Below are positions 15,962 to 34,470 of a DNA stretch of 34,638 nt, piece after piece (the first letter of the stretch is position 1; each line of letters begins with the position of its first letter). The translations under genes were made by a program, and so were the position numbers. The stretch covers positions 1-34,638 of the forward strand of contig JAFDWH010000007.1 of NCBI GenBank assembly GCA_018268595.1. Direction: 5' to 3'. Under the pieces are notes generated by a model that did no database searches, was not told the origin of the DNA, and worked only from the letters and a program-made list of their open reading frames with translations. Origin of the DNA: Actinomycetota bacterium (GTDB lineage Bacteria > Actinomycetota > Thermoleophilia > Solirubrobacterales > Solirubrobacteraceae).

Positions 15962-16047
<86 letters not shown>

Positions 16048-17177: not shown

Positions 17178-17182
17178 GAACG

Positions 17183-17505
17183 CCGCTGACCAAGCAGTCG
17201 CGGAGGTTCGTCCTTCGAGGAAAGTCCGGACATCACAGGGCAGGGTGGTCGGTAACGCCGACCCGGGGAAACCCGCGGGAAAGTGCCACAGAAATGACAC
17301 CGCCTACGTCCGCCTTCCGAGGCGGGCCGGCAAGGGTGAAATGGTGCGGTAAGAGCGCACCGGCGTCGCGGTGACGCGGCGGCCAGGCAAACCCCACCCG
17401 ATGCAAGGCCAAGCCGGACCGTTCGCAGGTTGCCCGCCGAGGTCCAGGTCGGCCGCACAGATGGATGACTGCTCACGACAGAATCCGGCTTACCGGTCAG
17501 CTACG
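17183..17505 (+). ncRNA. rnpB: RNase P RNA (class A)
   Basis: The invariant blocks are present: GAGGAAAGTCCGGACATC near 17217 (CR-I, P4 5' strand) and ACAGAATCCGGCTTACC near 17478 (CR-V, P4 3' strand), plus the purine-rich AGGGTGAAATGGTGCGGTAA segment near 17334. The terminal P1 helix can be drawn as GCTGACC (17185-17191) with GGTCAGC (17495-17501). The RNA is the catalytic subunit that trims tRNA 5' leaders. It is about 320 nt long. Ends are estimated from P1 and the flanking promoter and terminator. Confidence 0.95.
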
Positions 17506-17510
17506 GAAGA

Positions 17511-27679: not shown

Positions 27680-27762
27680 CCGCCTGAGGTTGCCGCACGG
27701 GAGCTGGGCGGCGGCGCTTCCGGTTTCCACCTCCGGGCGGTAGCCAACATAGATGTGGGAAG

Positions 27763-27775
27763 CGAACATGTGTTC

Positions 27776-27776
<1 letters not shown>
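27763..27776 (+). promoter_or_regulatory. SOS (LexA) box of dnaE2
   Basis: CGAACATGTGTTCG, identical to the imuB box. Its last base is the first base of the GTG start I prefer for dnaE2, so transcription must begin inside or just before the box and the message may have almost no leader. Confidence 0.9.
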
Positions 27777-31264
<3,488 letters not shown>

Positions 31265-31346: not shown

Positions 31347-31844
31347 ATGCTCGCGACCGTCGCATTTCTCGCGTTTTGGATCGTCGTCGGCCTCGTGCTG
31401 TTCTTCATCGCGCTGCGCGGCGGGCCGCGCGGAGCGCGCGCCACGCTCCAGTCGCAGAGCCGCGGCGGCCGCCGCGCCGCGGCGATCCTGTTCGCCGTCT
31501 TCTACGTCGCGGTCGGCGTCGCGGTGCCGCTGCTGATCCTCGTCGGCAACGACCACAGCGCCGACGCGCGCGTGGGCGGCACGGCGATCAGGCTCACGAA
31601 GCAGGAGCGCGACGGGCGCCAGGTGTTCGGCGAGCGCTGCGCGAGCTGCCACACGCTCGCCGCCGCGCGCGCGGACGGCAAGGTCGGCCCGAGCCTCGAC
31701 AAGCTGATGCCGCCCGCCGCCCTCGTCGCCGACGCGGTCACGAGAGGCCGCCAGCGCGGCAACGGCACGATGCCCGCCGGCATCGTCCAGGGGCAGGACG
31801 TCGCCGCCGTCGCGGCCTTCGTCGCCGCCGTCGCCGGCAAGTAG
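31347..31844 (+). CDS. Membrane-anchored cytochrome c
   Basis: 165 aa. Two hydrophobic segments (TVAFLAFWIVVGLVLFFIAL and AAAILFAVFYVAVGVAVPLL) precede a class I cytochrome c domain. CASCH (residues 98-102) binds haem and Met142 in NGTMPAGI is the likely axial ligand. It should carry electrons on the outer face of the membrane and is a natural client of the CcmEF system at 9.4 kb. TAGGGT (31330-31335) lies 11 nt before the ATG without a Shine-Dalgarno. A hairpin follows the stop. Confidence 0.9.
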   Translation: MLATVAFLAFWIVVGLVLFFIALRGGPRGARATLQSQSRGGRRAAAILFAVFYVAVGVAVPLLILVGNDHSADARVGGTAIRLTKQERDGRQVFGERCASCHTLAAARADGKVGPSLDKLMPPAALVADAVTRGRQRGNGTMPAGIVQGQDVAAVAAFVAAVAGK

Positions 31845-31877: not shown

Positions 31878-31904
31878 GCCGGTCGCTCCGGGAATCCGAC
31901 CGGC
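31878..31904 (+). terminator. Hairpin after the cytochrome c gene
   Basis: GCCGGTCG and CGACCGGC form an 8-bp stem with an 11-nt loop, 34 nt after the stop. There is no U-tract. It lies before the promoter of the riboswitch transcript. Confidence 0.5.
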
Positions 31905-31931
31905 GCTCTCCATAACATCGGCAAAACGCAG

Positions 31932-31959
31932 GTGCACGGTGGGCCACCGCTGCTAGGAT
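31932..31959 (+). promoter_or_regulatory. Promoter of the riboswitch transcript
   Basis: GTGCAC (31932-31937) and TAGGAT (31954-31959) are 16 nt apart, the same geometry as the rnpB promoter. Transcription would begin near 31966, at the 5' end of the riboswitch. Confidence 0.5.
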
Positions 31960-31965
31960 CGCCCC

Positions 31966-32095
31966 GCACATACCGCTGAATTCCCGCCCGAGTGGGGCGG
32001 GAAGCGGGGGACCCAGGACATCGGGGCGAATCGTGCAGGCCGCACGTAGCGCCGCTCTTTCGGCGCGAGCCCGTCAGCTAACCCCGTAAGCCGAC
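31966..32095 (+). ncRNA. c-di-AMP riboswitch (ydaO-yuaA class)
   Basis: Conserved blocks occur in order: CCGCTGAATTCCCG near 31973, AGCGGGGGACCCAGG near 32001, CGGGGCGAATCG near 32020, CTTTCGGCGCGAGCCCGTCA near 32058, and GCTAACCCCGTAAGCCGACG near 32077. The CGGGG(T/C)GAATC and GAGCCCGTCAGCTAACC elements are diagnostic of the ydaO class as it looks in actinobacteria. It senses c-di-AMP and normally lowers expression when bound. It lies directly before a small membrane-protein gene, with the gene's AGAGGA Shine-Dalgarno right after the aptamer, so control may act on translation or elongation. Confidence 0.9.
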
Positions 32096-32108
32096 GAAAG
32101 AGGACCGA

Positions 32109-32360
32109 ATGCCACCTGCCGAGGCGCCCCCACGCCCCGCCCGCACCGCCGCCGCGCCGCGTCGCACCGTCGTGATCCGCGGCCAGGTCGCTCCGCCGCC
32201 GCAGCCGCGTCCGTACGCCGCGACGACCGCCCGCCGGCGTCCGCCGCGCCGCGCGAGCGAGCGGATCGTCGGCACGCGCCCCGATCGCGCCGCCCTGTGG
32301 GCCGTGATGATGGGCGTCTTCCTGATCCTCGTCGCCGTCATGACGGCGCACGGCGCGTAG
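32109..32360 (+). CDS. Small Pro/Arg-rich single-pass membrane protein under c-di-AMP riboswitch control
   Basis: 83 aa. The first 58 residues are basic and Pro/Ala/Arg-rich (for example APRRTVVIRGQVAPPPQPRP). A single hydrophobic helix, ALWAVMMGVFLILVAVMTAH, lies at the C-terminus with only two residues after it, so it is a tail-anchored protein with a cytoplasmic basic domain. AGAGGA (32099-32104) precedes the ATG by 4-5 nt. I do not recognise the family. Genes with this riboswitch usually encode wall hydrolases or potassium/osmolyte transport functions; this one is neither by sequence. An envelope or osmotic role is inferred from the riboswitch alone. Confidence 0.75.
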   Translation: MPPAEAPPRPARTAAAPRRTVVIRGQVAPPPQPRPYAATTARRRPPRRASERIVGTRPDRAALWAVMMGVFLILVAVMTAHGA

Positions 32361-32507: not shown

Positions 32508-33068
32508 ATGAGAACTCCGATGAGCCGGTTCCACATCCACGACGACCTGACCGCTCCCGAGGCGTCCGCGCCCGTGCTGCGCGGGGCCACGGCGGCTGGC
32601 GGGCAGCTGCCGAACTTCCTCGGCGTGCTGGCCGGGTCGCCCGCCGCGCTGCGCGCCTACGCGCGCTTCCGCTCGGAGCTGCGCCACGGCCGCCTCGCGC
32701 CCGCCACGCTCGAGCGGATCGCGCTCGCGGTCGCCGAGCACGACGGGTCGGCGCCCGGCGTCGCGATGCACACGCGCGCCGCGCGCGCGGTCGGGCTGCG
32801 CTTCGACGAGGTCCAGATGGCGCGCCGCTGCGAGTCCAAGGACGCGCGCGAGGCCGCGCTGCTGCGCTGGATCGGCGCGCTGCTCGCGGGGGGCAAGCCG
32901 AGAATGCATCTCCACGAGGAGGCGCGCGAGGCCGGCTGGGACGACGAGGAGCTGCTGGAGGCGATGGCGGCCGTCGCGCTGGAGCGCTTCACGGCGATGG
33001 TCAACGTCGCCGGCGAGGTCCCCGTCGACGGCTCCGTCGAGGAGTCGCGCACGCTCAGCGCCGCCTGA
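32508..33068 (+). CDS. AhpD/carboxymuconolactone decarboxylase-like protein lacking the CxxC motif
   Basis: 186 aa, helical. LPNFLGVLAGSPAALRAYAR and LAPATLERIALAVAEHDGSA then GVAMHTRAARAVGL are the AhpD-like fold signature. Active members have CxxC where this protein has SAPG (about residues 81-84), while the following His is kept. It therefore cannot act as a dithiol peroxidase reductant and is more likely a divergent enzyme or a structural relative. Two starts are possible (ATG 32508 and 32520). The 147 nt upstream contains a TATAAG (32427-32432) that may be the -10. It lies 64 nt before glnA. Confidence 0.78.
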   Translation: MRTPMSRFHIHDDLTAPEASAPVLRGATAAGGQLPNFLGVLAGSPAALRAYARFRSELRHGRLAPATLERIALAVAEHDGSAPGVAMHTRAARAVGLRFDEVQMARRCESKDAREAALLRWIGALLAGGKPRMHLHEEAREAGWDDEELLEAMAAVALERFTAMVNVAGEVPVDGSVEESRTLSAA

Positions 33069-33132: not shown

Positions 33133-34470
33133 ATGCCCGACGCCCCGCTCACCGCCGACGACGTCAAGGCGCTCGTCCAGGAGCGCGACATCCGCTTCAT
33201 CCGGCTGTGGTTCACGGACGTCCTCGGTCAGCTGAAGTCGTTCTCGATCAACAGCAGCGAGCTGGACGACGCGTTCGAGGGCGGCATGGGCTTCGACGGC
33301 TCCTCGATCACCGGCTTCAACGCGATCGAGGAGTCGGACATGATCGCGCTGCCCGACCCGGCGACCTTCGCGGTGCTGCCGTGGCGCCCCCAGGACGACG
33401 GCGTCGGGCGCATGTTCTGCGACATCCAGACGCCCGAGCGCACGCCGTACGAGGGCGATCCGCGCCACGTCCTGCGGCGCGCGCTGCGGCGCATGAGCGA
33501 CATGGGCTTCGACGACTTCATGGTCGGCCCGGAGCTGGAGTACTTCTACTTCAGAGACGCGAGATCGACCGAGCCGCTCGACCAGGGCGGCTACTTCGAC
33601 CTCACGACGCTCGACGCCGGTTCGGACCTGCGGCGCGAGACGATCTTCGCGCTCGAGCAGCTCGGCATCCACGTCGAGTACAGCCACCACGAGGTCGGCC
33701 CCTCGCAGCACGAGATCGACATGCGCTACGCGCCCGCGCTGAAGATGGCCGACGACTGCATGACGTATCGCCTCACCGTCAAGGAGTGCGCGATGAAGTA
33801 CGGCCTCCACGCGACGTTCATGCCGAAGCCGCTGTTCGGCGAGAACGGGTCAGGCATGCACACGCACATGTCGCTGTTCAGAGACGGTAGAAACGCCTTC
33901 TTCGACGCCGACGACCAGTACTTCCTGTCGGAGATCGGCAAGGCGTTCATCGCCGGGCAGTTGCGCCACGCGCGCGAGATCTCCTCGATCTTCGCCCAGT
34001 GGGTGAACTCCTACAAGCGGCTCGTGCCGGGCTACGAGGCGCCGACCTACATCGCGTGGTCGCGGCGCAACCGCTCCGCGCTCGTGCGCGTGCCGCTCTA
34101 CCACCCTGGCAAGGAGCAGTCGACGCGCGCGGAGCTGCGCTGCCCGGACCCAGCCTGCAACCCGTACCTGACGTTCGCGGCGCTGCTGCAGGCGGGCCTC
34201 GAGGGGATCGAGCACGGCTACGAGCTTCCCGAGCCGATGGAGAAGAACCTCTACCACTTGGCGCCCGACGAGCGGCGCCGCCTCGGGATCGAGCAGCTGC
34301 CGGCGACGCTCGGCGAGGCGATCGAGCTGACGGCCGAGTCCGAGCTGGTGCTGCGCACGCTCGGCGAGCACATGTTCAACCGCTTCGTCGAGATCAAGCG
34401 GCAGGAGTGGGAGGACTACCGCGTGCAGGTCACCAGCTGGGAGCTGGAGAAGTACCTGCCGATCCTGTAG
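33133..34470 (+). CDS. glnA: Glutamine synthetase type I (alpha subtype)
   Basis: 445 aa. It joins ammonia to glutamate with ATP. Motifs: GFDGSSITGF (residues 53-62), VGPELEYFYF (about 131-140, metal-binding Glu), GENGSGMHTHMS (about 236-247, ATP/metal) and RRNRSALVRVP (about 311-321). The length and absence of the extra loop and adenylylation Tyr region (it reads NLYHLAPDERRRLGIEQLPA) place it in the GSI-alpha group of Bacillus, Thermotoga and archaea, which is controlled by feedback rather than adenylylation. AGGAG (33122-33126) precedes the ATG by 6 nt. A few arginines are AGA. It is convergent with the next gene. Confidence 0.95.
   Translation: MPDAPLTADDVKALVQERDIRFIRLWFTDVLGQLKSFSINSSELDDAFEGGMGFDGSSITGFNAIEESDMIALPDPATFAVLPWRPQDDGVGRMFCDIQTPERTPYEGDPRHVLRRALRRMSDMGFDDFMVGPELEYFYFRDARSTEPLDQGGYFDLTTLDAGSDLRRETIFALEQLGIHVEYSHHEVGPSQHEIDMRYAPALKMADDCMTYRLTVKECAMKYGLHATFMPKPLFGENGSGMHTHMSLFRDGRNAFFDADDQYFLSEIGKAFIAGQLRHAREISSIFAQWVNSYKRLVPGYEAPTYIAWSRRNRSALVRVPLYHPGKEQSTRAELRCPDPACNPYLTFAALLQAGLEGIEHGYELPEPMEKNLYHLAPDERRRLGIEQLPATLGEAIELTAESELVLRTLGEHMFNRFVEIKRQEWEDYRVQVTSWELEKYLPIL

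What the first reader, a model, noticed from the sequence alone, without database searches (positions are those of the whole stretch)
31932..32360. c-di-AMP riboswitch controlling an 83-aa tail-anchored membrane protein
The ydaO-class aptamer is well formed, with its own promoter, yet the gene behind it is not a wall hydrolase or ion transporter but a tiny basic Pro-rich protein with one C-terminal helix. It may be an undescribed c-di-AMP effector in envelope or osmotic control.
Basis: partly seen in the sequence, partly recalled or inferred. Interest (0 to 1): 0.65.

Follow-up and report, generated by a model that had tools for sequence, protein, structure and literature searches.

The report
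Riboswitch-controlled anchor of lost wall enzyme
A genuine c-di-AMP-sensing RNA switch sits in front of an 83-residue membrane protein which, judging by its counterparts at the same place in related soil bacteria, is the leftover anchor half of a cell-wall-cutting enzyme whose cutting half has been lost, while the switch and anchor have been kept.

Summary
A c-di-AMP (ydaO) aptamer (31964-32107, RF00379, 82.2 bits) ends one base before the ATG of an 83-aa, Arg/Pro-rich protein with one C-terminal membrane helix. A conserved extended -10 box precedes it. The gene is under purifying selection, and homologues occur in 101 of 146 genomes of its family and in three further families of the order, nearly always at the same locus (cytochrome c - riboswitch - gene - CMD - glnA).

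The reading changes. At this locus 19 genomes in two families carry a long form: the same cytoplasmic region and anchor followed by peptidoglycan-binding and RlpA-like (DPBB) lytic domains. Short and long forms coexist within genera g5, g10, g22 and g35. All 19 long forms keep the riboswitch; 24 of 99 short forms have lost it. So the 83-aa protein is best explained as the anchor half of a riboswitch-controlled wall enzyme that shed its exported enzyme. A cytoplasmic motif, RRTVxIRG, remains conserved in short forms, so the remnant probably still works, perhaps by recruiting a cytoplasmic partner (inferred).

Control is probably translational OFF: a known ydaO pseudoknot (CUCUUUCG/CGAAAGAG) overlaps the Shine-Dalgarno sequence. 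Ligand binding and function are untested.

The parts
31895..31915 (+). Conserved upstream block TCCGACCGNCGCTYTCCATAA, about 40 nt before the -10; role unknown
   Evidence: Alignment of seven genomes of the genus
31951..31959 (+). Extended -10 promoter element TGCTAGGAT (TGnTAGGAT in relatives)
   Evidence: Conserved in 7 of 7 genomes of the genus, directly before the aptamer; no conserved -35; not found by the consensus scan
31964..32107 (+). c-di-AMP (ydaO/yuaA) riboswitch aptamer
   Evidence: RF00379, 82.2 bits, E 7.4e-18, full length
32055..32062 (+). Loop strand of the pseudoknot, CUCUUUCG; resembles the anti-Shine-Dalgarno sequence
   Evidence: 8 Watson-Crick pairs with 32095-32102; nearly constant in orthologues
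32095..32103 (+). Tail strand of the pseudoknot, CGAAAGAG, overlapping the Shine-Dalgarno sequence GAAAGAGG (32096-32103)
   Evidence: Sequence; the equivalent CUCCUUCG/CGAAGGAG is readable in the crystallised ydaO RNA quoted in PMC5393176
32109..32360 (+). 83-aa protein: cytoplasmic basic region with RRTVVIRGQ (residues 18-26) and a C-terminal membrane anchor RPDRAALWAVMMGVFLILVAVMTA
   Evidence: Homologues in 101 of 146 genomes; profile A1; pN/pS below 1; AlphaFold2 helix 58-82
31347..31844 (+). Neighbour: membrane-anchored c-type cytochrome (conserved synteny)
   Evidence: PF13442 and PF00034; synteny
32508..33068 (+). Neighbour: carboxymuconolactone decarboxylase/AhpD-like protein
   Evidence: PF02627; synteny; opposite strand in family f3
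33133..34470 (+). Neighbour: glutamine synthetase glnA, the syntenic landmark
   Evidence: PF00120 and PF03951; synteny

Best explanation
The window carries a c-di-AMP riboswitch and a shortened target gene. The ancestral gene at this locus most likely encoded a membrane-anchored, exported wall enzyme: cytoplasmic N-terminal region, membrane helix ending in an AxA-like site, one or two peptidoglycan-binding domains, and an RlpA-like DPBB lytic domain. In the window's lineage, and repeatedly elsewhere in Solirubrobacterales, the exported part was lost, while riboswitch, start site, cytoplasmic region and anchor were kept. The 83-aa product should sit in the membrane with its basic N-terminus inside and almost nothing outside. 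Proposed working: when c-di-AMP is low the Shine-Dalgarno sequence GAAAGAGG is free and the protein is made together with the wall hydrolases of the same regulon. When c-di-AMP is high the folded aptamer pairs CUCUUUCG with CGAAAGAG and blocks translation. Its conserved cytoplasmic motif RRTVxIRG probably binds a cytoplasmic partner of envelope growth, so the remnant acts as an adaptor or competitor without enzyme. Shown by sequence: aptamer, pseudoknot complementarity, gene, homology of the anchor half to lytic enzymes, synteny, selection. Inferred: ligand binding, OFF direction, direction of domain change (loss), topology and partner.
For: Aptamer at 82 bits; the genome has one diadenylate cyclase domain (PF02457). 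The other riboswitches in this genome precede M23 peptidases (two), a transglycosylase-like enzyme, a DPBB lytic protein and a peptidoglycan-binding protein; one more has no Pfam hit. Orthologous locus across the order. Long forms: G007, G131, G129 and G033 in the window's family and G153, G159, G213 in family f3 have anchor plus PG_binding_1 plus DPBB_1; eleven more genomes of genus g10 likewise by alignment; G231 is cut by a contig end. Window against G007: 55% identity over 62 residues spanning RRTV and the anchor, E 1e-11. G038 (short) and G033 (long), same genus, align from start to anchor. Short and long in one genus: g5, g10, g22, g35. DPBB tree: 13 of 14 locus copies lie in one group, apart from most same-genome paralogues. 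Riboswitch with 18 of 18 long forms scored, and with G033, against 75 of 99 short forms, Fisher p 0.012 uncorrected for relatedness. Motif RRTVxIxG in 81 of 99 short forms. No intrinsic terminator found. Translational OFF control through such a pseudoknot was proposed for C. glutamicum nlpC (PMC9960051).
Against: No remnant of the lytic domain is detectable downstream in the window (three-frame check), so loss there is inferred from relatives. The DPBB tree is only moderately supported, one group of paralogues falls among the locus copies, and G156's copy groups with a paralogue, so re-fusion is not excluded. Family f3 branches first, so for the deepest step loss and gain cost the same. f3 and most g10 long forms lack the RRTVxIxG motif. 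The pseudoknot strands hardly vary: exchanging loops and tails between genomes gives 7.0 pairs against 7.15 observed, so covariation support is weak. Partner and function are unsupported beyond conservation and regulon membership.
Confidence: 0.72

Rival explanations
1. Gain instead of loss: the small anchored protein is the older form, an undescribed envelope regulator, and lytic domains were fused to it several times.
For: Short forms are by far the commoner (99 of 117); families f2 and f4 are all short; the motif is typical of short forms; first branching of f3 leaves the deepest step open.
Against: Locus DPBB domains of two families mostly group together rather than with paralogues of their own genomes, with the same PG_binding-DPBB order; at least four independent fusions of the same domain pair would be needed. 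The riboswitch's known targets in Actinobacteria are mostly wall enzymes (PMC9960051).
Confidence: 0.18
2. Decaying relic: the short gene is merely a remnant signal anchor that drifts, with no function of its own.
For: Riboswitch lost in 24 of 99 short forms and in none of the 19 long forms; locus wholly empty in several genomes (G021, G087, G097 and others); linker length and sequence vary greatly.
Against: pN/pS 0.25-0.68; motif and anchor kept across f1, f2 and f4; the gene is kept even where the riboswitch is gone.
Confidence: 0.12
3. Regulator or membrane tether of the neighbouring glutamine synthetase, by analogy with small basic disordered GS-inactivating factors (IF7/IF17) of cyanobacteria.
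For: Synteny with glnA throughout the order; basic, mostly unstructured, RNA-regulated small protein. The analogy is from memory.
Against: The cytochrome and CMD genes are equally syntenic; CMD lies on the opposite strand between the two genes in f3, so no conserved operon; the long forms are wall enzymes; glnA persists where the gene is absent.
Confidence: 0.05
4. The riboswitch mainly controls the downstream CMD and glnA genes and the 83-aa ORF is a leader.
For: All genes lie on one strand with gaps of 147 and 64 nt in the window.
Against: The Shine-Dalgarno overlap points to the first gene only; in C. glutamicum a similar switch affected only the first gene (PMC9960051). glnA lies further downstream in the other genomes of the genus; the ORF is under selection.
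Confidence: 0.05

Closest known systems
ydaO/yuaA c-di-AMP riboswitch (RF00379), actinobacterial wall-enzyme type (Streptomyces rpfA, Corynebacterium glutamicum nlpC)
   Same: Aptamer, pseudoknot complementarity with the tail, no terminator, Shine-Dalgarno in the aptamer tail, regulon of wall enzymes
   Different: The controlled product here has no enzymatic or exported domain
RlpA-like lytic proteins with a DPBB domain (PF03330) and peptidoglycan-binding domain (PF01471), in particular the long forms at the orthologous locus (L095, L112, L122, L126, L153)
   Same: Locus, riboswitch, RRTVxI motif in some (L095, L112, L122), PDRxAxWAV membrane anchor
   Different: PG-binding and DPBB domains absent from the window protein
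Small tail-anchored or single-pass regulatory membrane proteins of bacteria
   Same: One helix at the C-terminus, basic disordered cytoplasmic region
   Different: No sequence family shared: no Pfam hit, and only two weak single-member NCBIfam hits

Membership tests
c-di-AMP riboswitch (RF00379) | Covariance model score above the gathering threshold | tested here: met
   82.2 against 38 bits, positions 1-134
c-di-AMP riboswitch (RF00379) | Loop-tail pseudoknot | tested here: met
   8 Watson-Crick pairs, 32055-32062 with 32095-32102; covariation weak
c-di-AMP riboswitch (RF00379) | Binds c-di-AMP | not testable with these tools
   Needs in-line probing; a diadenylate cyclase domain is present in the genome
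c-di-AMP riboswitch (RF00379) | Genetic OFF control by transcription termination or translation block | tested here: inconclusive
   No terminator found; Shine-Dalgarno overlaps the pseudoknot; direction not measured
RlpA-like / DPBB lytic enzyme | DPBB domain (PF03330) | tested here: not met
   No Pfam hit in the 83 aa; no remnant downstream
RlpA-like / DPBB lytic enzyme | Homologous anchor and locus shared with DPBB-bearing members | tested here: met
Tail-anchored membrane protein | Single helix close to the C-terminus, N-terminus cytoplasmic | tested here: met
   Helix 58-82 of 83, hydrophobic 62-80, Arg-rich N-terminal side; orientation is inferred, not measured
Glutamine synthetase inactivating factor (IF7/IF17 type) | Binds and inhibits GlnA | not testable with these tools
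   Only synteny with glnA

The most novel reading that the evidence does not exclude
A new family of c-di-AMP-controlled membrane adaptors that arose repeatedly when riboswitch-regulated wall enzymes lost their enzyme, and that act through the conserved cytoplasmic RRTVxIRG motif as dominant competitors or positioning factors for envelope-growth machinery.
Probability: 0.3. Interest if true: 0.75.

Novelty: new variant of a known kind. Interest (0 to 1): 0.5.

Why it matters
Actinobacterial c-di-AMP riboswitches are known as switches of wall hydrolases. Here one has been kept over a target that lost its hydrolase, in many genera, while a cytoplasmic motif stays conserved. This suggests that some wall enzymes carry a functional cytoplasmic half that can outlive the enzyme, and it offers a testable handle (motif, cultured hosts such as Conexibacter arvalis and Svornostia abyssi) on how c-di-AMP reaches the envelope machinery in Thermoleophilia.

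Tried and rejected
Pfam on the 83-aa protein and on 21 family members: nothing; NCBIfam: two weak single-member hits (E 0.019 and 0.08), taken as chance. A paralogue of the small gene in the genome: none. A frameshift artefact or fresh truncation in the window: no DPBB or PG-binding remnant downstream at E up to 1, and all seven genomes of the genus are short. A glnA operon under the riboswitch: CMD strand and glnA spacing are not conserved. Outgroup test of polarity: glnA loci of other orders of the class carry no recognisable riboswitch (regex), so loss against gain is judged from the DPBB tree and from within-genus pairs. Covariation of the pseudoknot by loop/tail exchange: weak, since the strands hardly vary. 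Nelson et al. 2013 is not held. Literature searches for Thermoleophilia with c-di-AMP and Conexibacter with riboswitch found nothing on this locus.

Full report
What is there. Window 31964-32107 matches the c-di-AMP riboswitch model over its full length (82.2 bits, threshold 38). The genome holds seven such aptamers, six above threshold, and one diadenylate cyclase domain. The aptamer ends one base before the ATG of an 83-codon ORF (32109-32360). A TGnTAGGAT extended -10 box at 31951-31959 is conserved in all seven genomes of the genus, as is a second block 40 nt upstream; the plain sigma-70 scan sees neither, and finds no terminator. The genus contains Conexibacter arvalis (contig of 317,885 b, the same length as contig C6 of genome G026), class Thermoleophilia, order Solirubrobacterales.

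Is the ORF a gene? Yes. It has homologues in 101 of 146 genomes of the family, 21 of 25 genera, and with a profile in families f2, f3 and f4 of the order; in the rest of the class there are only three marginal hits. Within the genus pN/pS is 0.25-0.68 and third positions vary most. The family has a variable, charged linker, a nearly invariant RRTVxIRG motif, and RRRPPRR..ER.G.RPDRxAxWAVLLGxxLILVA at the C-terminus; longer members start with a WWADVEHLRE-like segment. AlphaFold2 finds only the C-terminal helix with confidence (58-82).

Association. Of the 30 best homologues, 25 have the ydaO core 34-48 nt before the start. In a wider set, 93 of 117 anchor genes had a core upstream (regex allowing two mismatches). 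The locus order is cytochrome c - riboswitch - gene - CMD - glnA in most genomes of f1 and f2. In 11 of 60 f1 loci the gene is present and no riboswitch passes Rfam's threshold. In the genomes that lack the gene (G021, G023, G085, G087, G091, G097, G121, G123, G126, G128, G142), no riboswitch lies at the glnA locus within the stretch fetched.

The turn. At this same locus, in sister family f3, the product continues past the anchor into PG_binding_1 and DPBB_1 domains (G153, G159, G213; G231 is cut by the contig end), and in G206 into a different, transglycosylase-like domain with only a weak Pfam hit (E 0.011). In the window's own family, G007, G131, G129 and G033 have the anchor and then PG_binding_1 and DPBB_1, and G007, G131 and G033 also carry the RRTVxI motif before it. 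Eleven further genomes of genus g10 are also long by alignment. The window protein and G007 align at 55% over 62 residues, across motif and anchor (E 1e-11). Short G038 and long G033, of one genus, align from the first residue through the anchor. Long and short forms coexist in genera g5, g10, g22 and g35. The 83-aa protein is therefore homologous to the anchor half of a riboswitch-controlled wall-lytic protein.

Loss or gain? A tree of DPBB domains places 13 of 14 locus copies in one group, with one set of paralogues among them, and away from most paralogues of the same genomes. This favours a single old enzyme at this locus and repeated loss, but support is moderate. The glnA tree puts f3 first, with the f1+f2+f4 fork weakly supported, which leaves the deepest change undecided. 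All 19 long forms have the riboswitch (18 scored, plus G033 with its core) against 75 of 99 short forms (Fisher p 0.012, not corrected for relatedness), as expected if the switch exists for the enzyme.

Regulation. The aptamer's loop CUCUUUCG (32055-32062) is complementary to the tail CGAAAGAG (32095-32102). The same pairing can be read in the crystallised ydaO RNA printed in PMC5393176. The tail strand overlaps the Shine-Dalgarno sequence GAAAGAGG five bases before ATG. The pairing is present in most of 67 loci but nearly invariant, so covariation is weak; a few loci show matched changes (for example GCUUCUC/GAGAAGC in G024, CUCUUC/GAAGAG in G136) and a few have lost it. In C. glutamicum nlpC a c-di-AMP riboswitch without terminator represses at the level of translation, and this kind of pseudoknot block was proposed (PMC9960051). 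Translational OFF control is the best inference here.

Function. The rest of the regulon in this genome consists of M23 peptidases, a transglycosylase-like enzyme, a DPBB protein, a peptidoglycan-binding protein and one protein without a Pfam hit. The shortened protein should be made with them when c-di-AMP is low. Since its cytoplasmic motif is conserved across three families while the outside part is gone, the likeliest role is to bind a cytoplasmic partner at the membrane. The partner is unknown; this step is inference (about one in three that it is an active adaptor of envelope growth).

Verdict. Observation confirmed, interpretation partly right. The riboswitch is ordinary for Actinobacteria; the target is a new variant: a wall-enzyme gene reduced to its anchor half, with the switch retained.

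Noticed in passing
31895-31915: A block TCCGACCGNCGCTYTCCATAA about 40 nt upstream of the -10 is largely conserved in all seven genomes of the genus; possible regulator site or second promoter.
   Followed up: partly
L007:1501-1640 (G000:C31:176136-176275): A seventh, below-threshold c-di-AMP aptamer (35.6 bits) precedes another DPBB lytic protein in the same genome.
   Followed up: partly
L161:2095-2634: In G206 the anchor is joined to a different, transglycosylase-like domain (weak Pfam hit), as if the enzyme had been exchanged at this locus.
   Followed up: partly
L188 and L185 (CAMCUD010000002.1, QHBY01000163.1): Public MAG records titled Bifidobacterium breve and Pseudonocardiales carry this Solirubrobacterales gene and look mislabelled.
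   Followed up: no
L104, L107, L087, L116: Several short forms carry Ala/His-rich tails of about 25-40 residues after an AxA-like site; they might be released peptides or decayed remnants.
   Followed up: no
27755-31264: A DnaE-type DNA polymerase III alpha subunit gene lies upstream of the cytochrome and is syntenic in most of the family; family judged from sequence and synteny only.
   Followed up: no
17182-17508: RNase P class A RNA (233 bits) and, at 15962-16047 on the minus strand, a tRNA gene.
   Followed up: no
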